Of a stretch of DNA of 64,000 nt, positions 12,357 to 52,545 are shown in pieces (the stretch's first letter is position 1; every line of letters begins with the position of its first letter). Position numbers and translations under genes: made by a program. Source of the stretch: Jacaranda mimosifolia (taxonomy: Eukaryota; Streptophyta; Magnoliopsida; Lamiales; Bignoniaceae); NCBI GenBank assembly GCA_018894105.1, contig CM032127.1, forward strand, positions 31,302,369-31,366,368. The letters are read 5' to 3'. The notes beneath the pieces are model-generated. The model saw nothing but the letters and a program-made list of their open reading frames with translations. It was not told where the DNA came from and did no database searches.

Positions 12357-12359
12357 CCT

Positions 12360-12580: not shown

Positions 12581-13585
12581 TGATGGTCTTTGATGTTCAG
12601 CTGTCACTCATTTGCATGCTAGGCATTTTTGCCACATATTTTGAAATCTTCCTTTTCATATCATTCGACCAGTGGTGTAGATTCAAGTCTTGGTACATTT
12701 TATTACTGCTGCGATAGATACTACAACAAGATCGATGGGGTTCATTTAAAATTTCCCTTTTCAAATTATTGTTTTGCGCAAATTCTACCTCAAAATTTTA
12801 GAATTTCTTTTGGGTTTATAACATCCCATCTTTTCTCATAAGTAATTTTCTCTTAAAAAAAATTAAATTATTAAATCTTTTTGATAACTATAGAAAATCA
12901 AGATTATAAAAACTTATTAAATTATGTGTGGTAAATAAACTATGTTATAAAGGCTGCCATTTGGATAAAATTAACGGGATTTCAAATCCCTCCAGTCATC
13001 TGATCACCCACGCAAATATACCATTAGAAATCTCTATCTGTGTAAAATATCGAGGTGGACTAGGATTTCAAAAATTATGCCGAAATCACACCTGAATTGC
13101 TGTCAAAATTGACATTGTCACACGCAGACATAACATGAGGTGATATTGTTTTGCTTATAATTTGAGAAACCGCAATCCAACTAGAGAAGGGAACCATGGA
13201 TAGAAAAAGCCCTAGCCCTACAACTGTAGATAAGGTTAGAAGGTAGGATTCACTGAAATTGATTCTGTGTACCGGCCTAACAAGTGTAAAAACCGCACCC
13301 TGCCACCTGGACGTGACCAAGGTCAAAATTCAACTTTGGATGGGAATTAGTGAAGATCAACCCGTTTCATCATCAAATTTAAGCTACAACTAGAAAATTC
13401 ATTGAGTTGTAAGTCCTTTTGAGGTGGATATCACCATTAAACTTTCTTAGCTTTGGCTAAAATATAGTTTTGATTAAAATTATCAAAGCTGCCTGTGTAG
13501 GATACAGGTTCTGAAAATGGGTGATTGTGTTAAATGATTGTGGGTGTTTGTGATGGTTGAGAATGTCAAATTAAATGTCAAGTTA

Positions 13586-13622
13586 CATTCTCAACCACAT
13601 TTATCAAAAGAAAAATGTCAAG
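13586..13622. other. Micro-inversion of about 37 bp within monomer 1
   Basis: Other monomers read CTTGACATTTTCCTTTTGAT AAATGTGGTTGAGAATG here (for example about 16287-16324). Monomer 1 has the reverse complement, starting CATTCTCAACCACATTTATC and ending ATGTCAAG. Upstream (13556-13566) an upright GGTTGAGAATG remains, so the inverted copy can pair with it as a hairpin. Fold-back template switching during replication would produce this. Confidence 0.75.
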
Positions 13623-14689
13623 TTAATTGAATTTCGTGGAAAAAAAAAACATGATTTAGATAATAATTTTGTTATTAAATGTGATTTTGGAACTATATGA
13701 CAAGCAAAGTATTAGGACATATTTGATTCGTTTAGGAATTTATAGGTAGGAAAGGTTACTCTTATACTCAAGCTATTAATGAAATTAATCACTTAGATTA
13801 TTAGATAATTAACTTCTCTGTCTTAAGTATTTGAGATAATAATACTAATTAAATCAAAAATTAACAAGATACATAGTAGTACTCCTAATTAAATTAGTTT
13901 TTCATAATACACTTATAACCAAAAGAACAACAAGAAATGATTGAATCTCGAATCCAGGTGATTGAGCTTACAAGTTTGTTGGAGAATTCAATTACAAGAA
14001 TCAGTTAGGTTTTCTATTCCTTCTAAGTTTTTATTCTCTTACCTTAATTCTTTTTCCTGAAAAACCTTGAATATTGATATGTGAGATCTTTTGTTCCTTC
14101 GCAATTTTATTCTGTTATCTGGTAATATGTTTTCTGAAATCATATGCCTATCTCGTATTTTCTGGAACACCTCGATTATTGGTATGTGAGGACTCCTATG
14201 CCATCTTAATTTCATCCTATTACTTGTTGATATTTTCCAGAAATCACATACCTATGTTATGTCTCCTCGAACACCTTTATTAGTGATACGGTAAGGTCTT
14301 CTACTCCTTTCTAATTTCTATTTGTTACTTGTTAATAGCAACTTCTTGAAATCACATATCCTTTATGCTATTCCTAAAAATGCTGTGATAATTGTTTGAC
14401 CTTCTTGGTAAGTTTTAGCCAATTGAAATCTTGAATTATTCCTAATTTCTTTTAATCAAAAGATCGTGTCATTATCAATAACTATTTCGTTTGCTTCTTT
14501 ATAATCAAAACTATGTTACTCAAATAAGCAAAGCAAGAGCCCCCTATGCCAAATACTTTCAGAACATCTGAAAAAGGAGTGTTTAAAAGAAAAGAAGAAT
14601 AGTTTTCTGAAAAAGTTTTCTTACTCCAAATAAATTATAACTTGAAAAGGTTCTAGTTTTCTAATTATTAAAAATATTGTCATCCTACT

Positions 14690-15255
14690 TGTCGAATTGG
14701 GGACTAAGTGCCACACTTGTTGACGGGAGTTGTGCGGCGGGGGCCACCTCGCATGACAAGAACCCTGGATCTCAATCCGAGATAATATTGATGGGCACCC
14801 CATCCAGTCGAATAACCTCATCCTTATATATATCTCAGCTAGTCATTCCACTCTATATATACACCATATTAATTGGCAAGAAGTGTGCTGATTTAGTAAG
14901 CTGATCGATAATGACCCAAATGAAATCATGCCCATTTCTAGTTCGAGGTAGCCCAGTAACAAAGTACACGGTTATTGCTTCCCATTTCCATTGTGGTATT
15001 GGCAATGATTGGAGAAACCCTGATGGTCTTTGATGTTTAGCTGTCGCTCATTGGCTTACTTGGCATTTTTGCCACATATTCTGAAATCTTCCTTTTCATA
15101 TTATTTTACCAATGGTGTAGCTTCATGTCTTGGTACATTTTATTACTGTCGGGATGATACTATAGCACGATCGATGGGGTTCATTTAAAATTTCCTTTTT
15201 CAAATCGTCGGTTCGTGCAAATTCTACGTCAAAATTTTAGAATTCATTTTTGGGT
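14690..15255 (-). pseudogene. Antisense Ty3 integrase fragment in monomer 1 (best preserved copy)
   Basis: On the minus strand, from about 15250 down, translation gives integrase in its normal order. The zinc-binding region comes first (ILNEAHRS-like, then KYVAKCLACK-like in sister copies), then [20 protein letters not shown], then NGHDFIWVIIDQLTKSAHFL, then EVIRLDGVPINIISD. The family residues WKWE, DFVTGLP, TKSAHFLP and the second catalytic region ISD-DP are recognisable. Frameshifts and stops are present, and the first-Asp position reads VYFVTGL instead of the usual DFVTGL. The fragment ends near 14690, before the catalytic Glu. It is about 560 bp of a roughly 1.2-kb integrase, from an element other than the one at 3475-12580. 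Confidence 0.85.
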
Positions 15256-15440
15256 TTATAACATCCCATCTTTTCTCATAAGTAATTTCTCTAAAAAAAA
15301 TTAAATTATTAAATCTTTTTGATAACTTCAGAAAATCAAGTTTAAAATTTTTTTCTTACTTATTTAATATCTTTGGGCCAATTCAAAATAAAGTAAAAAA
15401 TTCAAGAACCTCCCCAAGCAAATAACAAAACATGTACTTC

Positions 15441-15500
15441 TATAAATAGGGGTCAAGCCACATTGCCATTTCCACACAAAACTTCTCTTCTCTCTGCAGG
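15441..15500 (+). promoter_or_regulatory. TATA-type core promoter of the monomer
   Basis: TATAAATAGG at 15441 is followed about 30-40 bp later by a pyrimidine-rich, CA-containing stretch (TTCCACACAAAACTTCTCTTCTCTCT). TATA at this distance from a CA plus Y-patch is the normal layout of a plant core promoter and of LTR promoters. The equivalent TATAAATGGG sites lie at about 19316, 22184, 25041, 28883, 33885, 42416, 43150, 49713, 50446 and 51179. Activity is an inference. Confidence 0.6.
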
Positions 15501-18389
15501 CTGCCCAAAACCCAGTTTCTAAAACTCCAACCCCTCATCGATTAGACATCAAAAATTATAGCAAAATCCTCTTTAGCCCATCAAAGATCAAAATCATCAT
15601 AAAATTTCCCCAAAATTCCAGTCCCAAACTCTAGAATTACTATTAAAATCAAGAAGAAACTCGCTAGTTTGTAGAACGGCTGCCCAAACTTAAATTTTCA
15701 AAAAATTGAAAACCTGTCCCTCCAGCCACATGATCACCCACACTAGATATACCGTTAGAAATCTCTACCAGTGTAAATTATTGGGGTGGACTAGGATTTC
15801 AAAAATTATGCCGAAATCACACCTGAATTGCTGTCGAAATTGACATTGCCACACGCAGGCAGAACATGAGGTGATATTGCTTTGCTTGTAACTGGAGAAA
15901 CTGCCATCCTGTTAGAAAAGGGAACCGTGGATAGAAGAAGCGCTACGAGTGTAGATAAGGTTTGAAGGTAGGCTTCACTGAAATGGAGTTTGTATTCTGG
16001 CCTAAAAAGTCTAAACACCACAACTCGCCACTAGGACACGACCACAATCAGAACTCAACTTTGAATGGGAATTAGCGAAGATCGACTCCTTTGATCATCA
16101 AATTGAAGCTACAATTCAAAAATTCATTGAGTTGTAAGACTTTTGAGGTAGATATCTCCATTAAACTTCCTTAGATTTGGCTAAAATATAGTTTTGATGA
16201 AAATTATCAAAGTTGCCCATGTAGGAGATGGGTCTTAGATATGGGGAGATTGTGTTAAATGATTGTAGGTGTTTGTGATGGTGATAACTTGACATTTTCC
16301 TTTTGATAAATGTGGTTGAGAATGAATCCTCAGATTGTGGAGTTACATTGGATAATTAGAATTTGAAGTTAATTGAATTTGGTGGAAAAAATGAAACATG
16401 ATTTAGATAATAATGCTGTTATTAAATGTGATTTTGGAACTATGTGACAAGCAAAGTATTAGGACATATTTGATTCATTTAGAAATTTATAGGTAGGAAA
16501 GGCCACTCTTATACTTAAGCTATTAATGAAATTAATCACTTAGATTATTACATAATAATTTCTCTGTCTTAAGTATTTGAGATAACAATGCCAATTAGAT
16601 CCAAAATTAAAATGACACATAGTAGTACTCCAAATTAAAATAGTTTTTCATAAAACAATTATTACCAAAAGAACAATCAATAACGATTGAATCTTGAATC
16701 CAGGCAATTGAGCTTACAAGTTTTTTGGAGAATTCAATTACAAGATTAGGTTAGGTTTTCTATTCCTTCTAAATTTTTATTCTCTTACCATAATTCTTTT
16801 TCCTGAAACACCTTGAGTATTGATACGTGAGGTTTTCTGTTCCTTCGCAATTTCATTCTGTTACCTCTTAATATCTTTTCTGAAATCATATATCAATCTT
16901 GTATTTTTTGGAACAGCTCAATTATTGGTATGTACGGTCTCCTGTGCCCTCTTTATTTCATCCTGTTACTTGTCAATATTTTCTAGAAATCACATACCTA
17001 TCTTATTAGTGATAGGTAAGGTCTTCCACTCCTTTCTAATTTCAATTTGTAAATTGTTAATAGCTACTTATTGAAATCAACCAGTTTGATCATCAAATTG
17101 ATGCTACAACTAGAAAATTCATTGAGTCGCAAGACCTTCTGAGGTAGATATCACGATTAAACTTCCACAGATTTGCCTAAAATATACTTTCGATGAAATT
17201 TATCAAAGCTGTCTATGTAGGTGACGGGTCTTGGATATGGGTAGATTGTGCTAAATGATTGTGGGTGTTTGGGATGGCGATAACTTGAAATTTTCCTTTT
17301 GATAAATGTGGTTGAGAATGAATCCTCAGATTGTGGAGTTACATTGGATAATTAGAATTTGAAGTTAATTCAATTTGGTGGAAAAAAATGAAACTTGATT
17401 TAGATAATAATGTTGTTATTAAATGTGATTTTGGAACTATGTGACAAGCAAAGTATTAGGACATATTTGATTCATTTAGGAATTTATAGGTAGGAAAGGT
17501 CACTCTTATACTTAAGCTATTGATGAAATTAATCACTTAGATTATCAGATAATAATTTCTCTGTCTTAACAATGCCAATTAGATCCAAAATTAAAATGAC
17601 ACATAGTAGTACTCCAAATTAAATTAGTTTTTCTTACTACACTTATTACCAAGAGAACAATAAAAAACGATTGAATCTTGAATCCAGGCAATTGAGCTTA
17701 CAAGTTTGTTGGAGAATTCAATTACAAGATTAGGTTAGGTTTTCGATTCCTTCTAAATTTTTATTCTCTTACCTTAATTCTTTTTCCTGAAACACCTTCA
17801 GTATTGATACGTGAGGTCTTCTGTTCCTTTGCAATTTCATTCTGTTAACTCTTAAAATCTTTTCTGAAATCATATACCTATCTTGTATTTTTTGGAACAC
17901 CTCGATTATTGGCTTGTGGGGTCTCCTGTGCCCTCTTTATTTCATCCTATTACTTGTTAATATTTTCCAAAAATCACATACCTGTCTTATTAGTGACAGG
18001 TAAGGTCTTCTACTCCTTTCTAATTTCTATTTGTTAATTGTTAATAGCTATTTCTTGAAATCATATATCCTTTACGCACTTCCTAAAAATGCCTCGCTTA
18101 TTATGATGATAATTGTTTGACCTTCTTGGTAAGGTTAAGCCGGTTGAAATCCTGAATTATTCCTCCTTTCTTTTAATCAAAAGATCATGTCGTTATCAAT
18201 AATTGTTTCGTTTGCTTCTTCAAAATCAAAACTATGTTACCCAAATGATCAATGTGAGAACCCCCCCTATGCCAAATACTTTCAGAACATCTCAAAAAGG
18301 AGTGTTTAAATGAAAAGAAGAATATTTTTATGAAAAAGTTTTCTTACTCCAAATAAATTATTTCGTGTTTTCTAATTATTATAAATGTT

Positions 18390-18885
18390 CTCATCCTACT
18401 TGTCGAATCGGGAACTAAGTGCCACACTTGTTGACAGGGGTGTATGGTGGGGGCCACCTCTCGTGACCAGTACCTTGGATCTCAATCTAAGATAATATTG
18501 ATGGGTACCGCATGCAGTCGAATAACCGATCGATAATGACCCAAACGAAATCATGCCCATTTTCGGTTCATGGTTGCCCAACAACAAAGTACACGGCTGT
18601 TGCTTCCCATTTCCATTGCGGTATTGGCAATGATTGGAGAAGCTTCGACGGTCTTTGATGTTCAGCTGTCGCTCATTTACATGCTAGGTATTTTTGCCAC
18701 AAATTTTGAAATCTTCATTTTCATATATATTGTTCGACTAGTGGTGCAGCTTCAAGTCTTGGTACATTTTATTACTGCTGGGATAGATACTACAGTAGGA
18801 TCGATGGGCTTCATTTAAAATTTCCTTTTCCAAATCATCATTTTGCGCAAATTCTACCTCAAAATTTTAGAATTCCTTTTGGGTT
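18390..18885 (-). pseudogene. Antisense integrase fragment in monomer 2/3
   Basis: This is the same integrase piece as at 14690-15255, but about 85 bp shorter. At about 18523 the text jumps from CAGTCGAATAAC to CGATCGATAATGACC, losing the KSAHFLP-coding part. Minus-strand traces of ...RLRSKVLVT, WVIID-type and zinc-binding-domain sequence remain. The plus-strand 82-codon frame over it (18570-18818) is only the antisense shadow. Confidence 0.75.
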
Positions 18886-21259
18886 TATCCCATCCCATCT
18901 TTTCTCATAAGTAATTTTCCCTAAAAAAAATTGAATTATTAAATCCTTTTTGATAACTATAGAAAATCAAGATTATAAAGAATTGTTAAATTATGTGTGG
19001 TAAATAAACTACGTTATAAAGGCTGTCATTTGGATAAAATTAACGCGATTTCAAATTTTATGGGTTAATCAAAATTCGACCTTAATAAATCACTAAATAT
19101 ATGTATCCATATATGATATATATACTTAGATGATAAAACACAAAAAACACACCTCCTAAATCATGGATATATAATTAAATATGATAAATATATAATAATA
19201 CCTTTAGTAAAGAATTTCTCTTACACATTTAATATCTTTGGGCCAAATCAAAATAAAGTAAAAATTTCAAGGACCTCCCCTGGCAAATAACAAAACTTGT
19301 ACTTCTATAAATGGGAGCCAAGCCCCATTGCCTTTTCCACACAAAACTTATCTTCTCTCTGCAGGATGCTAAAAACCCAGCTTCTAACACTCCGGCCCCT
19401 CATCCATTGGACGTCAAAATTATACCCAAATCCTCTTTAGCCCATAAAAAATAAAAATCCTCAGAAAATTTCCCCAAAATTCCAGTCCCAAACTCTAGAG
19501 TTTCTGTCATAATCTAGAAGAGACCTGCTAGTTTGTAGAATGGCTGCCCAAACTTAAATTTTCAAAAAATCAAAACCCATCCCTCCAACCACCTGATCAC
19601 CCACGCAGATATACCGTTAGAAATCTCTATCTGTGTAAATTATCGAGGTGGACTAGGATTTCAAAAATTATGACGAAATCACACCTGAATTGTTGTCGAA
19701 ATTGACATTGCCACACGCTGGCAGAACAGGAGGTGATATTATTTTGCTTATAACTGGAGAAACCACCATCCAATTAGAAAAGGGAACTATGGATAGAAAA
19801 CGCCCTGCATGTGTAGATAAGGTTTTAATGTAGGATTCACTGAAATTGAATCTGTATTATGGCCTAAAAAGTGTAAAATACCGCAACCCACCACCAGGAC
19901 GCAACCATGGTCAGAACTCAACTTTGAATGGGAATTAGTGAAGATCAACCCGTTTGATCATCAAATTGATGCTACAACTAGAAAATTCATTGAGTCGCAA
20001 GACCTTTTGAGGTAGATATCACCATTAAACTTCCTTAGATTTGGCTAAAATATACTTTCGATGAAATTTATGAAAGCTGCCTATGTAGGAGACGGGTCTT
20101 GGATATGGGTAGATTGTGTTAAATGATTGTGGGTGTTTGTGATGGTGATAACTTGACATTTTCCTTTTGATAAATGTGGTTGTGAATGAATCCTCAGATT
20201 GTGGAATTACATTGGATAATTAGAATTTGAAGTTAATTGAATTTGGTGGAAAAAAATAAAACATGATTTGGATAATAATGCTGTTATTAAATGTGATTTT
20301 GGAACTATGTGACAGGCAAAGTATTAGGACATATTTGATTCATTTAGGAATTTATAGGTAGGAAAGGTCACTCTTATACTTAAGCTATTGATGAAATTAA
20401 TCACTTAGATTATCATATAATAATTTCTCTGTCTTAACAATGCCAATTAGATCCAAAATTAAAATGACACATAGTAGTACTCCAAATTAAATTAGTTTTT
20501 CGTACAACACATATTACCAAGAGAACAATAAAAAATTATTGAATCTTGAATCCAGGCAATTGAGCTTACAAGTTTGTTGGAGAATTCAATTACAAGATTA
20601 GGTTGGGTTTTTGATTCCTTCTAAATTTTTATTCTCTTACCTTAATTCTTTTTCCAGAAACACCTTCAGTATTGATACGTGAGGTCTTCTGTTCCTTTGC
20701 AATTTCATTCTGTTAACTCCTAAAATCTTTTCTGAAATCATATACCTATCTTGTATTTTTTGGAACACCTCGATTATTGGCTTGTGGGGTCTCCTGTGCC
20801 CTCTTTATTTCATCCTATTACTTGTTAATATTTTCCAAAAATCACATACCTGTCTTATTAGTGACAGGTAAGGTCTTCTACTCCTTTCTAATTTCTATTT
20901 GTTAATTGTTAATAGCTATTTCTTGAAATCATATATCCTTTACGCACTTCCTAAAAATGCCTCGCTTATTATGATGATAATTGTTTGACCTTCTTGGTAA
21001 GGTTAAGCCGGTTGAAATCCTGAATTATTCCTCCTTTCTTTTAATCAAAAGATCATGTCGTTATCAATAATTGTTTCGTTTGCTTCTTCAAAATCAAAAC
21101 TATGTTACCCAAATGATCAATGTGAGAACCCCCCCTATGCCAAATACTTTCAGAACATCTCAAAAAGGAGTGTTTAAATGAAAAGAAGAATATTTTTATG
21201 AAAAAGTTTTCTTACTCCAAATAAATTATTTCGTGTTTTCTAATTATTATAAATGTTCT

Positions 21260-21752
21260 CATCCTACTTGTCGAATCGGGAACTAAGTGCCACACTTGTT
21301 GACAGGGGTGTATGGTGGGGGCCACCTCTCGTGACCAGTACCTTGGATCTCAATCTAAGATAATATTAATGGGTACCGCATGCAGTCGAATAACCGATCG
21401 ATAATGACCCAAACGAAATCATGCCCATTTTCGGTTCATGGTAGCCCAGCAACAAAGTACACGGCTGTTGCTTCCCATTTCCATTGCGGTATTGGCAATG
21501 ATTGGAGAAGCTTCGACGGTCTTTGATGTTCAGCTGTCGCTCATTTACATGCTAGGTATTTTTGCCACAAATTTTGAAATCTTCATTTTCATATATATTG
21601 TTCGACTAGTGGTGCAGCTTCAAGTCTTGGTACATTTTATTACTGCTGGGATAGATACTACAGTAGGATCGATGGGCTTCATTTAAAATTTCCTTTTCCA
21701 AATCATCATTTTGCGCAAATTCTACCTCAAAATTTTAGAATTCCTTTTGGGT
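21260..21752 (-). pseudogene. Antisense integrase fragment in monomer 3/4
   Basis: It is nearly identical to the fragment at 18390-18885, with the same 85-bp internal deletion. Minus-strand integrase similarity includes the WKWEA-type segment and the zinc-binding region. Confidence 0.75.
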
Positions 21753-24129
21753 TTATCCCATCCCATCTTTTCTCATAAGTAATTTTCCCTAAAAAAAATT
21801 GAATTATTAAATCCTTTTTGATAACTATAGAAAATCAAGATTATAAAGAATTGTTAAATTATGTGTGGTAAATAAACTATGTTATAAAGGCTGTCATTTG
21901 GATAAAACTAACGCGATTTCAAATTTTATGGGTTAATCAAAATTCGACCTTAATAAATCACTAAATACATGTATCCATATATGATGTATATACTTAGATG
22001 ATAAAACACAAAAAACACACCTCCTAAATCATGGATATAAAATTAAATATGATAAATATATAATAATACCTTTAGTAAAGAATTTCTCTTACACATTTAA
22101 TATCTTTGGGCCAAATCAAAATAAAGTAAAAATTTCAAGGACCTCCCCTGGCAAATAACAAAACTTGTACTTCTATAAATGGGAGCCAAGCCCCATTGCC
22201 TTTTCCACACAAAACTTATCTTCTCTCTGCAGGATGCTAAAAACCCAGCTTCTAACACTCCGGCCCCTCATCCATTGGACGTCAAAATTATACCCAAATC
22301 CTCTTTAGCCCATAAAAAATAAAAATCCTCAGAAAATTTCCTCAAAATTCCAGTCCCAAACTCTAGAGTTTCTGTCATAATCTAGAAGAGACCTGCTAGT
22401 TTGTAGAATGGCTGCCCAAACTTAAATTTTCAAAAAATCAAAACCCATCCCTCCAGCCACCTGATCACCAACGCAGATATACCATTAGAAATCTCTATCT
22501 GTGTAAATTATCGAGGTGGACTAGGATTTCAAAAATTACGACGAAATCACACCTGAATTGTTGTCGAAATTGACATTGCCACACGCTGGCAGAACAGGAG
22601 GTGATATTATTTTGCTTATAACTGGAGAAACCACCATCCAATTAGAAAAGGGAACTATGGATAGAAAACGCCCTGCATGTGTAGATAAGGTTTTAATGTA
22701 GGATTCACTGAAATTGAGTCTGTATTATGGCCTAAAAAGTGTACAATACCGCAACCCACCACCAGGACGCAACCGTGGTCAGAACTCAACTTTGAATGGG
22801 AATTAGTGAAGATCAACCCGTTTGATCATCAAATTGATGCTACAACTAGAAAATTCATTGAGTCGCAAGACCTTTTGTGGTAGATATCACCATTAAACTT
22901 CCTTAGATTTGGCTAAAATATACTTTCGATGAAATTTATGAAAGCTGCCTATGTAGGAGACGGGTCTTGGATATGGGTAGATTGTGTTAAATGATTGTGG
23001 GTGTTTGTGATGGTGATAACTTGACATTTTCCTTTTGATAAATGTGGTTGTGAATGAATCCTCAGATTGTGGAATTACATTGGATAATTCGAATTTGAAG
23101 TTAATTGAATTTGGTGGAAAAAAATAAAACCTGATTTAGATAATAATGCTGTTATTAAATGTGATTTTGGAACTATGTGACAGGCAAAGTATTAGGACAT
23201 ATTTGATTCATTTAGGAATTTATAGGTAGGAAAGGTCACTCTTATACTTAAGCTATTGATGAAATTAATCACTTAGATTATCATATAATAATTTCTCTGT
23301 CTTAACAATGCCAATTAGATCCAAAATTAAAATGACACATAGTAGTACTCCAAATTAAATTAGTTTTTCGTACTACACTTATTACCAAGAGAACAATAAA
23401 AAACGATTGAATCTTGAATCCAGGCAATTGAGCTTACAAGTTTGTTGGAGAATTCAATTACAAGATTAGGTTGGGTTTTTGATTCCTTCTAAATTTTTAT
23501 TCTCTTACCTTAATTCTTTTTCCTGAAACACCTTCAGTATTGATACGTGAGGTCTTCTGTTCCTTTGCAATTTCATTCTGTTAACTCTTAAAATCTTTTC
23601 TGAAATCATATACCTATCTTGTATTTTTTGGAACACCTCGATTATTGGCTTGTGGGGTCTCCTGTGCCCTCTTTATTTCATCCTATTACTTGTTAATATT
23701 TTCCAAAAATCACATACCTGTCTTATTAGTAACAGGTAAGGTCTTCTACTCCTTTCTAATTTCTATTTGTTAATTGTTAATAGCTATTTCTTGAAATCAT
23801 ATATCCTTTACGCACTTCCTAAAAATGCCTCGGTTATTATGATGATAATTGTTTGACCTCCTTGGTGAGGTTAAGCCGGTTGAAATCCTGAATTATTCCT
23901 CGTTTCTTTTAATCAAAAGATCATGTCGTTATCAATAATTGTTTCGTTTGCTTCTTCAAAATCAAAACTATGTTACCCAAATGATCAATGTGAGAACCCC
24001 CCCTATGCCAAATACTTTCAGAACATCTCAAAAAGGAGTGTTTAAATGAAAAGAAGAATATTTTTATGAAAAAGTTTTCTTACTCCAAATAAATTATTTC
24101 GTGATTTCTAATTATTATAAATGTTCTCA

Positions 24130-39795: not shown

Positions 39796-41862
39796 GTACT
39801 TTTTATTACTGTTGGGATAGATACTGCAGTAGGATCGATGGGCTTCATTTAAAATTTCCTTTTTCAAATCATCGTTTTGCGCAAATTCTACCTCAAAATT
39901 TTAGAATTCCTTTTGGGTTTATCACATCCCATCTTTTCTCATAAGTAATTTTCGAGGTGGAGTAGGATTTCAAGAATTATGCATAAATCACACCTGGATT
40001 GCTGTCCAAATTGACATTGCCACACGCTGGCAGAACATGAGGTGATATTATTTTGCTTAAAACTGGAGAAACCACCATCTAATTAGAAAAGGGAACCACG
40101 GATAGGAAAAGCCCTAGCCCTCCAAGTGTAGATTAGAATGAAGCCCTAGCCCTCCAAGTGTAGATAGGAATGAAAGTAGGATTCACTGAAATTGAGTCTG
40201 TATTCTGGCCTAAAAAGTGTAAAATACCGCAACCCACCACCTGGACGCAACCATGGTCAGAACTCAACTTTGAATGGGAATTAGTGAAGATCAACCCGTT
40301 TGATCATCAAATTGATGCTACAACTAGAAAATTCATTAAGTCGCAAGACCTTTTCAGGTAGATATCACCACTAAACTTCCTTAGATTTGGCTAAAATATA
40401 GTTTTGGCGAAATTTGTCAAAGCTGCCAATGTAGGAGATGGGTCTTGGATATGGGTAGATTGTGTTAAATGATTGTGGGTGTTTGTGATGGTGATAACTT
40501 GACATTTTCCTGTTGATAAATGTGGTTGAGAATGAATCCTCAGATTATGGAGTTATATTGGATAATTGGAATTTGAAGTTAATTGAATTTGGTGGAAAAA
40601 AATGAAACATGATTAGAATAATAATGCTGTTATTAAATGTGATTTTGGAACTATGTGACAAGCAAAGTATTCGGACATATTTGATTCATTTAGGAATTTA
40701 TAGGTAGCAAAGGTCACCCTTATACTTAAGCTATTAGTGAAATTAATCACTTAGATTATCAGATAATAATTTCTCTGTCTTATGTATTTGAGATAACAGT
40801 GCCAATTAGATCCAAAATTAAAATGACACATAGTAGTACTCCAAATTAAATTAGTTTTTCATAATACACTTATTACCAAAAGAACAATTAATAACGATTG
40901 AATCTTGAATCCAGGCAATTGAGCTTACAAGTTTGTTGGAGAATTAAATTACAAGATTAGGTTAGGTTTTCTATTCCTTCTAAATTTTTATTATCTTACC
41001 TTAATTCTTTTTCCTGAAACACCTTGGGTATCGATACGCGAGGTCTTCTGTTCCTCCGCAATTTCACTCTTTTACCTCTTAATATCTTTTCTGAAATCAT
41101 ATACCTATCTTGTAGTTTTTGGAACACCTCGATTATTGGTATGTGGGGTCTCCTGTGCCCTCTTTATTTCATCCTATTACTTGTTAATATTTTCCAGAAA
41201 TCACATACCTATCTTATGTTTCCTCGAAGACCTTTATTAGTGACAGGTAAGGTCTTCCACTCCTTTCTAATTTCTATTTGTTAATTGTTAGTAGCTACTT
41301 CTTGAAATCATATATCCTTTACGCACTTCCTAAAAATGCCTCACTTATTATGGTGATAATTGTTTGACCTTCTTGGTAAGGTTAAGCCGGTTGAAATCCT
41401 GAATTATTCCTCTTTCCTTTCAATCAAAAGATCGTGTCGTTATCAATAATTGTTTCGTTTGCTTCTTCAAAATCAAAACTATGTTACTCAAACAATCAAT
41501 GTGAGAACCCCTCTCCCCCCCGATGCCAAATACTTTCGGAGCATCTCATAAGGAGTGTTTAAATGAAAAGAAGAATATTTTTATGAAAAAGTTTTCTTAC
41601 TCCAAATAAATTATTTCGTGTTTTCTAATTATTATAAATGTTCTCATCCTACTTGTGGAATCGGGAACTAAGTGCCACACTTGTTGACAAGGGTGTATGG
41701 TGGGGGCCACCTCTCGTGACTAGTACATTGGATCTCAATCTGAGATAATATTGATGGGTACCCCATGCAGTCGAATAACCTAATCCTTATACATCTTAGC
41801 TAGTCATTCCACTCTCTATATACCCCGTATTAATTCGACCAGTGGTGTAGCTACAAGTCTTG
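39796..41862 (+). repeat. L module 3 (2067 bp)
   Basis: It begins with the variant GTACTTTTTATTACTGTTGG. It carries private variants GTTTTGGCGAAATTTGTCAA, TCCTCGAAGACC, CTGGCATAGATAC and TTTTGGATTTATC, all shared only with L module 4, 4270 bp downstream. Confidence 0.9.
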
Positions 41863-44065
41863 GTACATTTTATTACTGCTGGCATAGATACTACAGTAGG
41901 ATCGATGGGCTTCATTTAAAATTCCCTTTTCAAATCATCGTTTTGCGCAAATTCTACCTCAAATTTTTTGAATTCCTTTTGGATTTATCACATCCCATCT
42001 TTTCTCATAAGTAATTTTCTCTTAAAAAAATTGAATTATTAAATCCTTTTTGATAACTATAGAAAATCAAGATTATAAAAAATTATTAAATTATGTGTGG
42101 TAAATAAACTATGTTATAAAGGCTGTCATTTGGATAAAATTAATGCGATTTCAAATTTTATGGGTTAATCAAAATTCGACCTTAATAAATCACTAAGTAC
42201 ATGTATCCATATATAATATATATATATATATATACTTAGATGATAAAACACAAAAAACATACCTCCTAAATCACGGATATATAATTAAATGTGATAAATA
42301 TATAATAATATCTTCTATAAAGAATTTGTCTGACTTATTTAATATCTTTGGGCCAATTCAAAATAATGTAAAAATTTCAAGGACCTCCCTTGGCAAATAA
42401 CAAAACTTGTACTTCTATAAATGGGAGCCTTTTCCACACAGAACTTCTCTTCTCTCTGCAGGCTGCCAAAAACCAGGCTTCTAACACTCCGGCCCCTCAT
42501 CCATTGGCCGTCAAAATTATAGCCAAATCCTCTTTAGCCCAAAAAGAATCAAAATCCTCAGAAAACTTCCCCAAAATTCTACTCCCAAACTCTATGGTAC
42601 ATTTTATTATTGCTGGGATGGATACTACAGTAGGATCGATGGGCTTCATTTAAAATTTCCTTTTTCAAATCATCGTTTTGCGCAAATTCTACCTCAAAAT
42701 TTTAGAATTCCTTTTGGGTTTATCACATCCCACCTTTTCTCATAAGTAATTTTCTCTTAAAAAAACTGAATTATTAAATCCTTTTTGATAACTATAGAAA
42801 ATCAAGATTATACAAAATTATTAAATTATGTGTGGTAAATAAACTATGTTATAAAGGCTGTCATTTGGATAAAATTAATGCGATTTCAAATTTTATGGGT
42901 TAATCAAAATTCGACCTTAATAAATCACTAAGTACATGTATCCATATATAATATATATATATATATACTTAGATGATAAAACACAAAAAAACATACCTCC
43001 TAAATCACGGATATATAATTAAATGTGATAAATATATAATAATATCTTCTATAAAGAATTTGTCTGACTTATTTAATATCTTTGGGCCAATTCAAAATAA
43101 AGTAAAAATTTCAAGGACCTCCCTTGGTAAATAACAAAACTTGTACTTCTATAAATGGGAGCCTTTTCCACACAGAACTTCTCTTCTCTCTGCAGGCTGC
43201 CAAAAACCCAGCTTCTAACACTCCGGCCCCTCATCCATTGGCCGTCAAAATTATAGCCAAATCCTCTTTAGCCCAAAAAGAATCAAAATCCTCAGAAAAA
43301 TTCCCCAAAATTCTACTCCCAAACTCTATGGTACATTTTATTACTGCTGGGATAGATATTACAGTAGGATCGATGGGCTTCATTTAAAATTTCCTTTTTC
43401 AAATCATCGTTTTGCGCAAATTCTACCTCAAAATTTTAGAATTCCTTTTGGGTTTATCAAATCCCATCTTTTCTCATAAGTAGTTTTCTCTTAAAAAAAT
43501 TGAATTATTAAATCCCTTTTGATAACTATAGAAAATCAAGATTATAAAAAATTATTAAATTATGTGTGGTAAATAAACTATGTTATAAAGGCTGTCATTT
43601 GTATAAAATTAACGCGATTTCAAATTTTATGGGTTAATCAAAATTCGACCTTAATAAATCACTAAATACATGTATCCATATAATATATATATATATATAT
43701 ATACTTAGATGATAAAACACAAAAAACATACCTCCTAAATCATGGATATATAATTAAATGTGATAAATATATAATAATATCTTCTATAAAGAATTTGTCT
43801 GACTTATTTAATATCTTTGGGCCAATTCAAAATAAAGTAAAAATTTCAAGGACCTCCCTTGGCAAATAACAAAACTTGTACTTCTATAAATCGGAGCCTT
43901 TTCCACACAGAACTTCTCTTCTCTCTATAGGCTGCGAAAAACCCAGCTTCTAACACTCCGGCCCCTCATCCATTGGCCGTCAAAATTATAGCCAAATCCT
44001 CTTTAGCCCAAAAAGAATCAAAATCCTCAGAAAAATTCCCCAAAATTCTACTCCCAAACTCTATG
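41863..44065 (+). repeat. S block 4: three short modules
   Basis: Modules start near 41863, 42600 and 43332. TATA sites are TATAAATG (42416), TATAAATG (43150) and TATAAATC (43887). The last one (TCGGAGCC variant, CTCTATAGGCTGCGAAAAAC) matches the last module of S block 3, as expected if the two blocks' right ends were copied together with their L modules. Confidence 0.9.
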
Positions 44066-46132
44066 GTACTTTTTATTACTGTTGGGATAGATACTGCAGT
44101 AGGATCGATGGGCTTCATTTAAAATTTCCTTTTTCAAATCATCGTTTTGCGCAAATTCTACCTCAAAATTTTAGAATTCCTTTTGGGTTTATCACATCCC
44201 ATCTTTTCTCATAAGTAATTTTCGAGGTGGAGTAGGATTTCAAGAATTATGCATAAATCACACCTGGATTGCTGTCCAAATTGACATTGCCACACGCTGG
44301 CAGAACATGAGGTGATATTATTTTGCTTAAAACTGGAGAAACCACCATCTAATTAGAAAAGGGAACCACGGATAGGAAAAGCCCTAGCCCTCCAAGTGTA
44401 GATTAGAATGAAGCCCTAGCCCTCCAAGTGTAGATAGGAATGAAAGTAGGATTCACTGAAATTGAGTCTGTATTCTGGCCTAAAAAGTGTAAAATACCGC
44501 AACCCACCACCTGGACGCAACCATGGTCAGAACTCAACTTTGAATGGGAATTAGTGAAGATCAACCCGTTTGATCATCAAATTGATGCTACAACTAGAAA
44601 ATTCATTAAGTCGCAAGACCTTTTCAGGTAGATATCACCACTAAACTTCCTTAGATTTGGCTAAAATATAGTTTTGGCGAAATTTGTCAAAGCTGCCAAT
44701 GTAGGAGATGGGTCTTGGATATGGGTAGATTGTGTTAAATGATTGTGGGTGTTTGTGATGGTGATAACTTGACATTTTCCTGTTGATAAATGTGGTTGAG
44801 AATGAATCCTCAGATTATGGAGTTATATTGGATAATTGGAATTTGAAGTTAATTGAATTTGGTGGAAAAAAATGAAACATGATTAGAATAATAATGCTGT
44901 TATTAAATGTGATTTTGGAACTATGTGACAAGCAAAGTATTCGGACATATTTGATTCATTTAGGAATTTATAGGTAGCAAAGGTCACCCTTATACTTAAG
45001 CTATTAGTGAAATTAATCACTTAGATTATCAGATAATAATTTCTCTGTCTTATGTATTTGAGATAACAGTGCCAATTAGATCCAAAATTAAAATGACACA
45101 TAGTAGTACTCCAAATTAAATTAGTTTTTCATAATACACTTATTACCAAAAGAACAATTAATAACGATTGAATCTTGAATCCAGGCAATTGAGCTTACAA
45201 GTTTGTTGGAGAATTAAATTACAAGATTAGGTTAGGTTTTCTATTCCTTCTAAATTTTTATTATCTTACCTTAATTCTTTTTCCTGAAACACCTTGGGTA
45301 TCGATACGCGAGGTCTTCTGTTCCTCCGCAATTTCACTCTTTTACCTCTTAATATCTTTTCTGAAATCATATACCTATCTTGTAGTTTTTGGAACACCTC
45401 GATTATTGGTATGTGGGGTCTCCTGTGCCCTCTTTATTTCATCCTATTACTTGTTAATATTTTCCAGAAATCACATACCTATCTTATGTTTCCTCGAAGA
45501 CCTTTATTAGTGACAGGTAAGGTCTTCCACTCCTTTCTAATTTCTATTTGTTAATTGTTAGTAGCTACTTCTTGAAATCATATATCCTTTACGCACTTCC
45601 TAAAAATGCCTCACTTATTATGGTGATAATTGTTTGACCTTCTTGGTAAGGTTAAGCCGGTTGAAATCCTGAATTATTCCTCTTTCCTTTCAATCAAAAG
45701 ATCGTGTCGTTATCAATAATTGTTTCGTTTGCTTCTTCAAAATCAAAACTATGTTACTCAAACAATCAATGTGAGAACCCCTCTCCCCCCCGATGCCAAA
45801 TACTTTCGGAGCATCTCATAAGGAGTGTTTAAATGAAAAGAAGAATATTTTTATGAAAAAGTTTTCTTACTCCAAATAAATTATTTCGTGTTTTCTAATT
45901 ATTATAAATGTTCTCATCCTACTTGTGGAATCGGGAACTAAGTGCCACACTTGTTGACAAGGGTGTATGGTGGGGGCCACCTCTCGTGACTAGTACATTG
46001 GATCTCAATCTGAGATAATATTGATGGGTACCCCATGCAGTCGAATAACCTAATCCTTATACATCTTAGCTAGTCATTCCACTCTCTATATACCCCGTAT
46101 TAATTCGACCAGTGGTGTAGCTACAAGTCTTG
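44066..46132 (+). repeat. L module 4 (2067 bp), twin of L module 3
   Basis: It shares all private variants with L module 3. Together with the preceding module end and the following segment, it forms a duplicated block of period 4270 bp (about 39.6-42.2 kb versus 43.9-46.4 kb) with almost no differences by eye. Confidence 0.9.
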
Positions 46133-46867
46133 GTACATTTTATTACTGCTGGCATAGATACTACAGTAGGATCGATGGGCTTCATTTAAAATTCCCTTTT
46201 CAAATCATCGTTTTGCGCAAATTCTACCTCAAATTTTTTGAATTCCTTTTGGATTTATCACATCCCATCTTTTCTCATAAGTAATTTTCTCTTAAAAAAA
46301 TTGAATTATTAAATCCTTTTTGATAACTATAGAAAATCAAGATTATAAAAAATTATTAAATTATGTGTGGTAAATAAACTATGTTATAAAGGCTGTCATT
46401 TGGATAAAATTAATGCGATTTCAAATTTTATGGGTTAATCAAAATTCGACCTTAATAAATCACTAAATACATGTATCCATATATAATATATATATATATA
46501 TATACTTAGATGATAAAACTCAAAAAACATACCTCCTAAATCATGGATATATAATTAAATGTGATAAATATATAATAATATCTTCTATAAAGAATTTGTC
46601 TGACTTATTTAATATCTTTGGGCCAATTCAAAATAAAGTAAAAATTTCAAGGACCTCCCTTGGCAAATAACAAAACTTGTACTTCTATAAATCGGAGCCT
46701 TTTCCACACAGAACTTCTCTTCTCTCTGTAGGCTGCCAAAAACCCAGCTTCTAACACTCCGGCCCCTCATCCATTGGCCGTCAAAATTATAGCTAAAATC
46801 CTCTTTAGCCCAAAAAGAATCAAAATCCTCAGAAAAATTCCCCAAAATTCTACTCCCAAACTCTATG
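46133..46867 (+). repeat. S block 5: one short module
   Basis: A single module of about 735 bp with TATAAATCGG at about 46685, ending at the ACTCTATG|GTACATTTT join at 46866. It has an extra base in GCTAAAATCCTC near 46792. Confidence 0.9.
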
Positions 46868-49165
46868 GTACATTTTATTGCTGCTGGGATAGATACTGCA
46901 GTAGGATCGATGGGCTTCATTTAAAATTTCCTTTTTCAAATCATCGTTTTGCGCAAATTCTACCTCAAAATTTTAGAATTCCTTTTAGGTTTATCACATC
47001 CCATCTTTTCTCATAAGTAATTTTCGAGGTGGAGTAGGATTTCAAGAATTATGCAGAAATCACACCTGGATTGCTGTCGAAATTGACATTGCCACACGCT
47101 GGCAGAACATGAGGTGATATTATTTTGCTTAAAACTGGAGAAACCACCATCTAATTAGAAAGGGAACCACGGATAGAAAAAGCCCTAGCCCTCCAAGTGT
47201 AGATAAGAATGAAGCCCTAGCCCTCCAAGTGTAGATAGGAATGAAAGTAGGATTCACTGAAATTGAGTCTGTATTCTGGCCTAAAAAGTGTAAAATACCG
47301 CAACCCACCACCTGGACGCAACCATGGTCAGAACTCAACTTTGAATGGGAATTAGTGAAGATCAACCCGTTTGATCATCAAATTGGTGCTACGACTAGAA
47401 AATTCATTTAGTCGCAAGACCTTTTCAAGTAGATATCACCATTAAACTTCCTTAGATTTGGCTAAAATATAGTTTTGACGAAATTTATCAAAGCTGCCAA
47501 TGTAGGAGATGGGTCTTGGATATGGGTAGATTGTGTTAAATGATTGTGGGTGTTTGTGATGGTGATAACTTGACATTTTCCTGTTGATAAATGTGGTTGA
47601 GAATGAATCCTCAGATTATGGAGTTATATTGGATAATTGGAATTTGAAGTTAATTGAATTTGGTGGAAAAAAATGAAACATGATTAGGATAATAATGCTG
47701 TTATTAAATGTGATTTTGGAACTATGTGACAAGCAAAGTATTCGGACATATTTGATTCATTTAGGAATTTATAGGTAGCAAAGGTCACCCTTATACTTAA
47801 GCTATTAGTGAAATTAATCACTTAGATTATAAGATAATAATTTCTCTGTCTTATGTATTTGAGATAACAGTGCCAATTAGATCCAAAATTAAAATGACAC
47901 ATAGTAGTACTCCAAATTAAATTAGTTTTTCGTAATACACTTATTACCAAAAGGACAATTAATAACGATTGAATCTTGAATCCAGGCAATTGAGCTTACA
48001 AGTTTGTTGGAGAATTAAATTACAAGATTAGGTTAGGTTTTCTATTCCTTCTAAATTTTTATTATCTTACCTTAATTCTTTTTCCTAAAACACCTTGGGT
48101 ATTGATACGCGAGGTCTTCTGTTCCTCCGCAATTTCACTCTTTTACCTCTTAATATCTTTTCTGAAATCATATACCTATCTTGTAGTTTTTGGAACACCT
48201 CGATTATTGGTATGTGGGGTCTCCTGTGCCCTCTTTATTTCATCCTATTACTTGTTAATATTTTCCAGAAATCACATACCTATCTTATGTTTCCCCGAAG
48301 ACCTTTATTAGTGACAGGTAAGGTCTTCCACTCCTTTCTAATTTCTATTTGTTAATTGTTAGTAGCTACTTCTTGAAATCATATATCCTTTACGCACTTC
48401 CTAAAAATGCCTCACTTATTATGGTGATAATTGTTTGACCTTCTTGGTAAGGTTAAGCCGGTTGAAATCCTGAATTATTCCTCTTTTCTTTCAATCAAAA
48501 GATCGTGTCGTTATCAATAATTGTTTCGTTTGCTTCTTCAAAATCAAAACTATGTTACTCAAACAATCAATGTGAGAACCCCTCTCCCCCCCCGATGCCA
48601 AATACTTTCAGAGCATCTCATAAGGAGTGTTTAAATGAAAAGAAGAAAATTTTTATGAAAAATTTTTCTTACTCCAAATAAATTATTTCGTGTTTTCTAA
48701 TTATTATAAATGTTCTCATCCTACTTGTGGAATCGGGAACTAAGTGCCACACTTGTTGACAAGGGTGTATGGTGGGGGCCACCTCTCGTGACTAGTACCT
48801 TGGATCTCAATCTGAGATAATATTGATGGGTACCCCATGCAGCCGAATAACCTAATCCTTATACATCTTAGCTAGTCATTCCACTCTCTATATACCCCGT
48901 ATTAATTGGCAAGAAGTGTGCTGATTTAGTAAGCCGATCGATAATGACCCAAACGAAATCATGCCCATTTTCGGTTCATGGTAGCCCAGCAACAAAGTAC
49001 ACGGCTATTGCTTCCCATGTCCATTGCGGTATTGGCAATGATTGGAGAAGCTTCGACGATCTTTGATGTTCAGCTGTCACTCATTTGCATGCTAGGTATT
49101 TTTGCCACATATTTTGAAATCTTCCTTTTCATATTGTTCGACCAGTGGTGTAGCTACAAGTCTTG
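46868..49165 (+). repeat. L-prime module: L module that keeps the full integrase piece
   Basis: It is about 2296 bp, 229 bp longer than the other L modules. The whole excess lies between CCCCGTATTAATT (about 48906) and CGACCAGTGGTG (about 49139). There it retains GGCAAGAAGTGTGCTGATTT through CCTTTTCATATTGTT, as in monomer 1. It shares private variants with L module 2. It therefore represents the state before the 229-bp deletion. Confidence 0.9.
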
Positions 49166-49285
49166 GTACATTTTATTACTGCTGGGATAGATACTACAGT
49201 AGGATCGATGGGCTTCATTTAAAATTTCCTTTTCAAATCATCGTTTTGCGCAAATTCTACCTCAAAATTTTAGAATTCCTTTTGG
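48740..49285 (-). pseudogene. Antisense integrase fragment in the L-prime module
   Basis: This is the full-length version of the integrase fragment, comparable to 14690-15255: zinc-binding part at about 49280-49080, WKWEA-type part near 49020, TKSAHFL-type part near 48930, and the second-Asp region near 48810. All are degenerate. The plus-strand 70-codon frame at 48978-49190 is the antisense shadow. Confidence 0.8.
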
Positions 49286-51358
49286 GTTTATCACATCCCA
49301 TCTTTTCTCATAAGTAATTTTCTCTTAAAAAAATTGAATTATTAAATCCTTTTTGATAACTATAGAAAATCAAGATTATAAAAAATTATTAAATTATGTG
49401 TGGTAAATAAACTATGTTATAAAGGCTGTCATTTGGATAAAATTAACGCGATTTCAAATTTTATGGGTTAATCAAAATTCGACCTTAATAAACCACTTAG
49501 TACATGTATCCATATATAATATATATATATACTTAGATGATAAAACACAAAAAACATACCTCCTAAATCATGGATATATAATTAAATGTGATAAATATAT
49601 AATAATATCTTCTATAAAGAATTTGTCTGACTTATTTAATATCTTTGGGCCAATTCAAAATAATGTAAAAATTTCAAGGACCTCCCTTGGCAAATAACAA
49701 AACTTGTACTTCTATAAATGGGAGCCTTTTCCACACAGAACTTCTCTTCTCTCTGCAGGCTGCCAAAAACCCGGCTTCTAACACTCCGGCCCCTCATCCA
49801 TTGGCCGTCAAAATTATAGCCAAATCCTCTTTAGCCCAAAAAGAATCAAAATCCTCAGAAAAATTCCCCAAAATTCTACTCCCAAACTCTATGGTACATT
49901 TTATTATTGCTGGGATAGATACTACAGTAGGATCGATGGGCTTCATTTAAAATTTCCTTTTTCAAATCATTGTTCTGCGCAAATTCTACCTCAAAATTTT
50001 AGAATTCCTTTTGGGTTTATCACATCCCACCTTTTCTCATAAGTAATTTTCTCTTAAAAAAACTGAATTATTAAATCCTTTTTGATAACTATAGAAAATC
50101 AAGATTATAAAAAATTATTAAATTATGTGTGGTAAATAAACTATGTTATAAAGGCTGTCATTTGGATAAAGTTAACGCGATTTCAAATTTTATGGGTTAA
50201 TCAAAATTCGACCTTAATAAATCACTAAATACATGTATCCATATAATATATATATATATATATACTTAGATGATAAAACACAAAAAACATACTTCCTAAA
50301 TCATGGATATATAATTAAATGTGATAAATATATAATAATATCTTCTATAAAGAATTTGTCTGACTTATTTAATATCTTTGGGCCAATTCAAAATAAAGTA
50401 AAAATTTCAAGGACCTCCCTTGGCAAATAACAAAACTTGTACTTCTATAAATGGGAGCCTTTTCCACACAGAACTTCTCTTCTCTCTGCAGGCTGCCAAA
50501 AACCCAGCTTCTAACACTCCGGCCCCTCATCCATTGGTCGTCAAAATTATAGCCAAATCCTCTTTAGCCCAAAAAGAATCAAAATCCTCAGAAAAATTCC
50601 CCAAAATTCTACTCCCAAACTCTATGGTACATTTTATTACTGCTGGGATAGATATTACAGTAGGATCGATGGGCTTCATTTAAAATTTCCTTTTTCAAAT
50701 CTTCGTTTTGCGCAAATTCTACCTGAAAATTTTAGAATTCCTTTTGGGTTTATCACATCCCATCTTTTCTCATAAGTAATTTTCTCTTAAAAAAATTGAA
50801 TTATTAAATCCTTTTAGATAACTATAGAAAATCAAGATTATAAAAAATTATTAAATTATGTGTGGTAAATAAACTATGTTATAAAGGCTGTCATTTGGAT
50901 AAAATTAACGCGATTTCAAATTTTATGGGTTAATCAAAATTCGACCTTAATAAATCACTAAATACATGTATCCATATATAATATATATATATATATACTT
51001 AGATGATAAAAAACAAAAAACATACCTCCTAAATCATGGATATATAATTAAATGTGATAAATATATAATAATATCTTCTATAAAGAATTTGTCTGACTTA
51101 TTTAATATCTTTGGGCCAATTCAAAATAAAGTAAAAATTTCAAGGACCTCCCTTGGCAAATAACAAAACTTGTACTTCTATAAATGGGAGCCTTTTCCAC
51201 ACAGAACTTCTTTCTCTCTGTAGGCTGCCAAAAACCCAGCTTCTAACACTCCGGCCCCTCATCCATTGGCCGTCAAAATTATAGCCAAATCCTCTTTAGC
51301 CCAAAAAGAATCAAAATCCTCAGAAAAATTCCCCAAAATTCTACTCCCAAACTCTATG
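49166..51358 (+). repeat. S block 6: three short modules
   Basis: Modules start near 49166, 49894 and 50630. TATA sites are intact in all three (TATAAATG at about 49713, 50446 and 51179). The third has a two-base shorter leader (GAACTTCTTTCTCTCTG, about 51205). Confidence 0.9.
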
Positions 51359-52545
51359 GTACATTTTATTACTGCTGGGATAGATACTGCAGTAGGATCG
51401 ATGGGCTTAATTTAAAATTTCCTTTTTCAAATCATCGTTTTGCGCAAATTCTACCTCAAAATTTTAGAATTCCTTTTGGGTTTATCACATCCCTTCTTTT
51501 CTCATAAGTAATTTTCGAGGTGGAGTAGGATTTCAAGAATTATGCAGAAATCACACCTGAATTGCTGTCGAAATTGACATTGCTACACGCTGGCAGAACA
51601 TGAGGTGATATTATTTTGCTTAAAACTGGAGAAACCACCATCCAATTAGAAAAGGGTACCACGGATAGAAAAAGCCCTAGCCCTCCAAGTGTAGATAAGA
51701 ATGAAGCCCTAGCCCTCCAAGTGTAGATAAGAATGAAAGTAGGATTCACTGAAATTGAGTCTGTATTCTGGCCTAAAAAGTGTTAAATACTGCAACCCAC
51801 CACCTAGACGCAACCATGGTCAGAACTCAACTTTGAATGGGAATTAGTGAAGATCAACCCGTTTGATCATCAAATTGATGCTACAACTAGAAAATTCATT
51901 GAGTCGCAAGACCTTTTCAGGTAGATATCACCGTTCAACTTCCTTAGATTTGGCTAAAATATAGTTTTGATGAAATTTATCAAAGCTGCCAATGTAGGAG
52001 ATGGGTCTTGGATATGGGTAGATTGTGTTAAATGATTGTGGGTGTTTGTGATGGTGATAACTTGACATTTTCCTTTTGATAAATGTGGTTGAGAATGAAT
52101 CCTCAGATTATGGAGTTATATTGGATAATTGGAATTTGAAGTTAATTGAATTTGGTGGAAAAAAATGAAACATGATTTAGATAATAATGTTGTTATTAAA
52201 TGTGATTTTGGAACTACATGACAAGCAAAGTATTAGGACATATTTGATTCATTTAGGAATTTATAGGTAGCAAAGGTCACCCTTATACTTAAGCTATTAG
52301 TGAAATTAATCACTTAGATTATCAGATAATAATTTCTCTGTCTTAAGTATTTGAGATAACAGTGCCAATTAGATCCAAAATTAAAATGACACATAGTAGT
52401 ACTCCAAATTAAATTAGTTTTTCATAATACACTTATTACCAAAAGAACAATCAATAACTATTGAATCTTGAATCCAGGCAATTGAGCTTACAAGTTTGTT
52501 GGAGAATTCAATTACAAGATTAGGTTAGGTTTTCTATTCCTTCTA
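51359..52545 (+). repeat. Last, truncated L module and right edge of the array
   Basis: It has the L-type join AAGTAATTTTCGAGGTGGAG at about 51512, then the long segment. It stops at TTTTCTATTCCTTCTAA (52545), where every other copy continues with ATTTTTATT. The next base starts gag-like sequence. It has some older-type bases (for example GATTTAGATAATAATG as in 18-24 kb). Confidence 0.9.

What the first reader, a model, noticed from the sequence alone, without database searches (positions are those of the whole stretch)
12581..52545. A 40-kb tandem array with a 2.87-kb monomer and nested higher-order structure
Seen: 29 copies of one landmark, all in one orientation, with spacings that resolve into full monomers on the left and a mixture of about 733-bp S modules and 2067-bp L modules on the right (S runs of 1, 4, 5, 3, 1, 3 between L modules). 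Each module type lacks a part that the other keeps, so (S)n-L is a rearranged monomer that was then amplified. Known: plant satellites are usually 150-400 bp, but multi-kilobase, retrotransposon-derived satellites occur, for example in potato centromeres. Inference: this may be a previously undescribed satellite family, possibly pericentromeric or centromeric.
Basis: partly seen in the sequence, partly recalled or inferred. Interest (0 to 1): 0.85.

Follow-up and report, generated by a model that had tools for sequence, protein, structure and literature searches.

The report
Retrotransposon-derived plant tandem repeat array
A plant chromosome carries a long head-to-tail array of a roughly three-kilobase unit made from the end of one jumping gene joined to a backwards piece of an integrase gene, probably from a different jumping gene, part of which was later reshuffled into a second layer of repeats; it is a well-preserved case of a known process, seen at two places in this genome, and nothing here marks it as a general centromere repeat.

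Summary
12,582-52,546 is a one-orientation tandem array with 29 landmark copies: full monomers (2,867-2,868 bp), then S (727-737 bp) and L (mostly 2,068 bp) modules in S-runs 1,4,5,3,1,3. It is the right part of a 108.6-kb array on C11; a 12-kb sister array lies on C12. A junction pattern has 45 matches in the 707-Mb assembly, 42 on C11 and 3 on C12, control 0. The monomer is a chimera. M1-2444 is the first two thirds of a roughly 3.5-kb gypsy LTR with 18 dispersed relatives found. M2445-2868 is antisense gypsy integrase with 19 relatives outside the arrays among 40 listed, probably another family. The LTR terminus is base-exact in two of three C12 units, as nested insertion would leave it. 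One S plus one L is one monomer in which about 140 bp were replaced by a second copy of about 163 bp. S modules group by position in the run, not by run: blocks were copied. Retrotransposon origin is supported; a genome-wide centromeric satellite is not. New member of a known kind.

The parts
12582..52546 (+). tandem array inside the window, right-hand part of a 108.6-kb array
1365..2535 (+). isolated array fragment (M2726-2858 + M20-1070), separated from the array by LINE-like and gypsy DNA; its left edge abuts ...GGGGTGTTACA, which looks like an LTR end on the minus strand
   Evidence: LTR-end reading is by eye
12582..17067 (+). older, rearranged units (85-94% to M)
17068..25749 (+). block of full and partial monomers close to M (94-99%)
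18886..21329 (+). M1-2444 of the reference monomer: first two thirds of a gypsy LTR, from its 5' terminus
19306..19312 (+). TATAAAT at M421, presumed LTR core promoter; intact in both M and 10 of 17 S modules, changed by one base in the other 7; L modules lack the region
   Evidence: activity inferred
21330..21753 (-). M2445-2868: antisense integrase fragment (H2C2 zinc-binding region to start of core) of a gypsy element
   Evidence: tblastn; tblastx; genome search with an older unit
14818..15255 (-). the same integrase fragment in an older unit that keeps the ~80 bp lost from M
26247..52546 (+). S/L higher-order block
28455..31253 (+). one S-L unit: a monomer in which M613-752 is replaced by a second copy of about M2743-35
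29055..29221 (+). example of the extra ~163-bp landmark copy that makes S and L separate modules
46859..49157 (+). L' module, keeps the integrase part deleted from the other L modules

Best explanation
A local, long-monomer satellite born from nested gypsy LTR retrotransposons. (1) Anatomy shown, event inferred: an element with a ~3.5-kb LTR inserted, in opposite orientation, into the integrase gene of another gypsy element, leaving its LTR terminus joined to antisense integrase. (2) Inferred: an illegitimate join between LTR position ~2,444 and the integrase fragment created a tandem unit of about 3.0 kb. (3) Shown: the unit was amplified and homogenised in blocks on C11, with a small sister array on C12; compared units are 98-100% alike inside a block and 85-92% between blocks. 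(4) Shown by junctions: in one lineage 140 bp (M613-752) were replaced by a second copy of ~163 bp. (5) The extra direct repeat let unequal exchange or gene conversion add or drop 733-bp S modules (inferred), and whole L-S...S blocks were copied (shown by position-specific S types). No product or function is needed: it is a neutral or selfish product of recombination in TE-rich DNA.
For: LTR part: the genome search lists 18 places outside the two arrays (a lower bound: 23 of 386 candidates were scored); longest match per place 70-80%. Their mutual similarity reaches beyond the monomer (4 of the 18 used as queries); five measured LTRs are 3.0-3.8 kb. Of 12 starts printed 10 begin TGTAA; of 12 ends printed 7 have GCCACA and 5 a one-base variant; 3 ends (L009, L011, L018) are followed by a primer-binding site within one mismatch of the initiator-Met type, and two starts (L010, L016) follow a purine tract. 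A copy at C5:32.229-32.241 Mb has two LTRs 89.2% alike around protease, RT, RNase H, H2C2 and SH3_Tf2-1 domains. Integrase part: tblastn on the minus strand, E 8e-47 in an older unit, 3e-27 in M; 19 of 40 listed genome matches lie outside the arrays at 80-84% (40 of 172 candidates scored). Two families: the array integrase is 57-60% like that of the LTR family's own copies L038 and L040, less than the LTR parts are to each other. Terminus: two of three C12 units read GGGTT|TGTAACATCCC; C11 units differ by a few bases. Both arrays share outer and inner junctions. Blocks. S-L derivation. Position classes: within 98.46% vs between 97.50%, 0 of 10,000 permutations; landmark removed 98.42 vs 97.81, 2 of 10,000; grouping by run goes the other way.
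Against: Only one side of the presumed insertion survives in the monomer, so a target-site duplication cannot be shown. Direct parents were not found: best near-full-length dispersed LTR 76%, best dispersed integrase 84%. The integrase tree leaves the array on a long branch next to none of the fetched copies. In Pfam the array piece reaches only 15.8 bits for H2C2 (cutoff 25.5). S-L junctions show little or no microhomology, so the repair route is open; unequal exchange, gene conversion and rolling circles are not separated. L modules at 39,787 and 44,057 are 100.0% identical, and no reads were available to check the assembly.
Confidence: 0.85

Rival explanations
1. Self-integration chimera: the LTR element's own cDNA attacked its own integrase region in inverse orientation, and the resulting circle was amplified and re-inserted on C11 and C12.
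For: Also gives an exact LTR terminus joined to inverted integrase and would explain one unit on two chromosomes.
Against: The array integrase is 57-60% like that of the LTR family's own copies L038 and L040 but 80-84% like other dispersed copies.
Confidence: 0.09
2. A true pericentromeric or centromeric satellite with kinetochore function.
For: Long retrotransposon-derived monomers occur in potato centromeres (PMC3648361 discussion; PMC9659126 passages); higher-order structure; TE-rich surroundings.
Against: Junction found at two loci only, 45 copies; C11 array at 31.3 of 36.1 Mb. A repeat of a single centromere is not excluded.
Confidence: 0.05
3. Assembly artefact of a shorter repeat.
For: Two L modules are 100.0% identical over 2,068 bp.
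Against: Blocks differ by 8-15%, S types are position-specific, and a second array on another contig shares the junctions.
Confidence: 0.03
4. A tandem gene cluster (protein or structured RNA).
For: TATAAAT at M421, kept in both M and 10 of 17 S modules.
Against: No Rfam match at gathering score and no tRNA in the window; no Pfam match above its cutoff in six frames of M (best AmyB_C, 20.4 bits, cutoff 27); longest frame, 108 aa, had 4 candidates and none at E<=1; the TATA box is accounted for by the LTR and is changed in 7 of 17 S modules.
Confidence: 0.02

Closest known systems
CRM1TR / CRM4TR of maize (PMC3648361: abstract, discussion and the CRM1TR section read)
   Same: Tandem repeats derived from gypsy LTR plus neighbouring element DNA; few loci; locally distinct, homogenised variants; internal repeats that vary in number; arrays interrupted by younger retrotransposons; illegitimate recombination proposed as the start.
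   Different: They come from one element's LTR and UTR; CRM1TR monomers average 0.7-0.8 kb. Here LTR plus antisense integrase, ~3 kb, base-exact LTR terminus in C12 units, and a two-module S/L layer.
Sobo and the St3-58 group of potato satellites (as cited in PMC3648361 and PMC9659126 passages; original papers not read)
   Same: Kilobase monomers with LTR similarity; sobo monomer 4.7 kb, ~360 kb in the chromosome 7 pericentromere, composite with other DNA.
   Different: The potato centromeric ones span centromere cores; no centromere link is shown here. Sequences could not be compared.
Tandem LTR-retrotransposon structures in rice and other plants (PMC11899658: abstract and discussion read)
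   Same: Tandem copies of LTR-retrotransposon DNA, often gypsy, variable copy number.
   Different: Those alternate LTRs and internal regions; here the LTR is cut at ~2.44 kb and no PBS, PPT or gag-pol lies between copies.
Ogre 3'UTR-derived satellites of Lathyrus (PMC7004042: abstract and passages read)
   Same: Satellites from LTR retrotransposons.
   Different: Those grow from short tandem repeats already inside the element's 3'UTR; this monomer is LTR plus antisense integrase.

Membership tests
LTR-retrotransposon-derived tandem repeat / satellite | monomer homologous to dispersed LTR-retrotransposon sequence | tested here: met
LTR-retrotransposon-derived tandem repeat / satellite | head-to-tail array of locally homogenised copies | tested here: met
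LTR-retrotransposon-derived tandem repeat / satellite | the joined unit occurs in tandem | tested here: met
   junction matches lie in the two arrays, 45 of 45
Abundant satellite DNA family | high copy number, megabase scale or many chromosomes | tested here: not met
   two loci, 45 junction matches; 82,568 bp matching M in the C11 stretch; assembly may be incomplete
Centromeric satellite | present at most centromeres | tested here: not met
   a repeat of a single centromere is not excluded
Centromeric satellite | CENH3 occupancy | not testable with these tools
   no ChIP data
Tandem LTR-RT (LTR-internal-LTR) | PBS, PPT and internal region between whole LTRs | tested here: not met
   no initiator-Met-type PBS within 2 mismatches in M and no purine tract at the junction (other primer types not tested); LTR cut at M2444
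Chromovirus-type gypsy (parent of the LTR) | gypsy domain order with chromodomain | tested here: inconclusive
   in one copy RVP, RT, RNase H, H2C2, SH3_Tf2-1 pass their cutoffs; integrase core (18.1 of 32.6 bits) and chromo domain (17.5 of 25.1) do not
rDNA-spacer satellite | rRNA match | tested here: not met
   0 Rfam matches in the window; spacer sequence itself not tested

The most novel reading that the evidence does not exclude
The array is an accidental silencing locus: full units carry an LTR promoter whose transcript would run into an antisense copy of the integrase of a gypsy family still dispersed at 80-84% identity, so the array could make antisense or small RNA against it, and S-module growth would multiply promoter plus antisense piece. 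Against it: the TATA box is changed in 7 of 17 S modules.
Probability: 0.04. Interest if true: 0.75.

Novelty: new member of a known kind. Interest (0 to 1): 0.4.

Why it matters
It is a readable record of how a long-monomer satellite starts and grows: the origin junction, later rearrangements, block-wise homogenisation and a second array with the same junctions are preserved in one assembly. It supports the view, already in print for maize and potato (PMC3648361), that retrotransposon LTRs seed new tandem repeats.

Tried and rejected
Protein-coding or RNA-gene origin: Rfam, tRNA, six-frame Pfam and a protein search with the longest frame gave nothing convincing; AmyB_C (E 4.7e-4, below cutoff, no stretch passing alone) was dismissed. 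The six-frame Pfam scan missed the integrase because the frames are broken; tblastn found it.

Derivation from the gypsy copy in the window (LTR match 3,477-3,695 / 12,362-12,581): no similarity to M at word size 11. Parentage of the integrase fragment from the LTR family's own pol, from the window gypsy or from the L031 gypsy: not supported by identity (56-61%) or tree. The 7-base overlaps of BLAST pieces at the S-L junctions, which I first took for microhomology, were dropped on reading the bases. Naming the species from protein hits: best 75% (Sesamum; 120 of 7,992 listed) and 63% (Aristolochia; 120 of 901 listed), so left open. In one search two of seven sources (L041, window right flank) gave no integrase stretch and were left out of the tree. 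Between the first and the final filing I added (TATA count), which lowered the bold reading from 0.05 to 0.04, and lowered the main confidence from 0.87 to 0.85 because the second integrase family was not read; the self-integration rival went from 0.08 to 0.09 for the same reason.
Full report
What is there. The window lies at C11:31,302,369-31,366,368 of an unnamed 707-Mb assembly in 65 contigs; its mobile-element proteins have plant relatives. The array runs from 12,582 to 52,546 and holds 29 landmark copies in one orientation; a further fragment lies at 1,365-2,535. Three zones are seen: old rearranged units (12.6-17.1 kb), units close to M including two complete 2,867-2,868-bp repeats 98.9% alike (17.1-25.7 kb), and S/L modules (26.2-52.5 kb) in S-runs of 1,4,5,3,1,3.

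Extent. Fetched flanks show array sequence from C11:31,246,310 to 31,354,914, i.e. 108.6 kb, of which 82,568 bp match M. The three gaps over 300 bp measure 11.9, 1.9 and 10.0 kb; the first and third hold gypsy pol. The 10 kb left of it hold one 53-bp match, the 20 kb right of the window none. 44 landmarks were mapped on C11, one of them inverted. A regular run left of the window has spacings of 3,013-3,055 bp; five compared units of it are 98-100% alike, while two older units (L032a, L030a) are 86-90% like everything else. M-block, S/L-block, left run and C12 unit are 85-92% alike (12 units compared). A second array lies on C12 at 19,016,741-19,028,868, reverse strand, with three landmarks and an inner gap of 3.4 kb. 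A 31-base junction pattern with up to 3 mismatches has 45 matches in the assembly, 42 in the C11 array and 3 in the C12 array; the reversed control has 0. So this is a two-locus repeat in this assembly.

Origin of the LTR part. The genome search with the monomer listed 71 matches, a lower bound since 23 of 386 candidates were scored. Outside the two arrays they fall at 18 places, all 18 fetched (L009-L026). Similarity between loci extends beyond the monomer (four of them as queries); five measured copies are 3,032-3,804 bp long. Of 12 starts printed, 10 begin TGTAA, L016 differs by a base and L021 is truncated. Of 12 ends printed, 7 show GCCACA and 5 a one-base variant; L009, L011 and L018 go on with a primer site within one mismatch of TGGTATCAGAGC, and L010 and L016 are preceded by a purine tract. 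These are LTR features; the primer-site motif is recalled knowledge. L018 with L038 is one copy with two LTRs 89.2% alike around protease, RT, RNase H and the integrase zinc domain. M1 sits at the LTR's first bases and M2444 lies inside the LTR. TATAAAT at M421 is where an LTR promoter would be; it is intact in both M and 10 of 17 S modules.

Origin of the rest. M2445-2868 matches gypsy integrase on the minus strand: the zinc-binding region and the start of the core, with frame breaks; older units score best. A genome search with 438 bp of an older unit lists 40 matches (40 of 172 candidates scored): 18 in the C11 array, 3 in the C12 array and 19 elsewhere at 80-84%, one of these 4 kb from the C12 array. 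The LTR family's own integrase copies that I could read are 57-60% alike to it, less than the LTR parts are to each other. So the monomer most likely joins two families; the 19 copies themselves could not be read. In two of three C12 units the join reads GGGTT|TGTAACATCCC, the LTR terminus to the base; the third C12 unit and the C11 units differ by a few bases there. That is what an integration event would leave.

Origin of S and L. One S plus one L aligns to one monomer, with M613-752 missing and a second copy of about M2743-35 in its place. L has also lost about M2511-2715, which L' keeps, and M has lost about 80 bp that L' and left units keep. The extra copy makes direct repeats about 733 and 2,068 bp apart, a natural substrate for adding S modules. 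S modules at the same position in different runs are more alike than others: 98.46 vs 97.50%, 0 of 10,000 permutations; landmark removed, 2 of 10,000; single-S runs also removed, 12 of 10,000; grouping by run, 9,380 of 10,000. Two pairs of 3.5-kb blocks are 99.5 and 98.9% alike and one pair of 2.8 kb 98.75%. So blocks were copied rather than each run grown alone. The position classes were defined by me from the map, and the landmark difference between first and later S modules follows partly from the derivation, which is why the landmark-free test was run.

Function. None is shown. In S modules transitions hit C/G sites more often in CG and CHG than in CHH context, on few sites (3/16, 4/25, 9/174); in L modules this holds for CHG (5/76) but not CG (1/64), against 8/583 for CHH. 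That is at most weakly in line with methylated DNA. The centromere idea has no support here beyond the general resemblance to potato centromere repeats.

Verdict. A well-preserved new example of a known kind. The interest lies in the legible history, not in a new principle.

Noticed in passing
window 3473-12581: Gypsy element on the minus strand (initiator-Met PBS complement at 12345-12356, protease 9535-9999, RT/RNase H 7813-8976) whose right LTR seems cut where the array begins; LTR remnants 94.5% alike over 220 bp.
   Followed up: partly
window 2953-3546: Open frame with DUF4283 and a zinc knuckle, typical of plant LINE ORF1 (recalled), between the array fragment and the gypsy element.
   Followed up: no
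window 53039-60606: Nested inverted repeats (arms 596 bp at 89% and 357 bp at 92%), foldback-like, right of the array; between them a frame at 56926-58032 with a zinc knuckle and a below-cutoff protease match.
   Followed up: no
window 61402-61711: Three tandem copies of a 105-bp unit.
   Followed up: no
C11:31254715-31266637 (L030-L032): 11.9-kb gap in the array with gypsy pol, next to a locally inverted stretch of array units.
   Followed up: partly
C12:19012550-19012981: An integrase relative (82%) lies about 4 kb from the C12 array on the same strand; it may be a remnant of the founding locus.
   Followed up: no
window 39787-41854 and 44057-46124: Two L modules 100.0% identical while their neighbouring S modules differ by over 1%: a very recent exchange or an assembly effect.
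   Followed up: no
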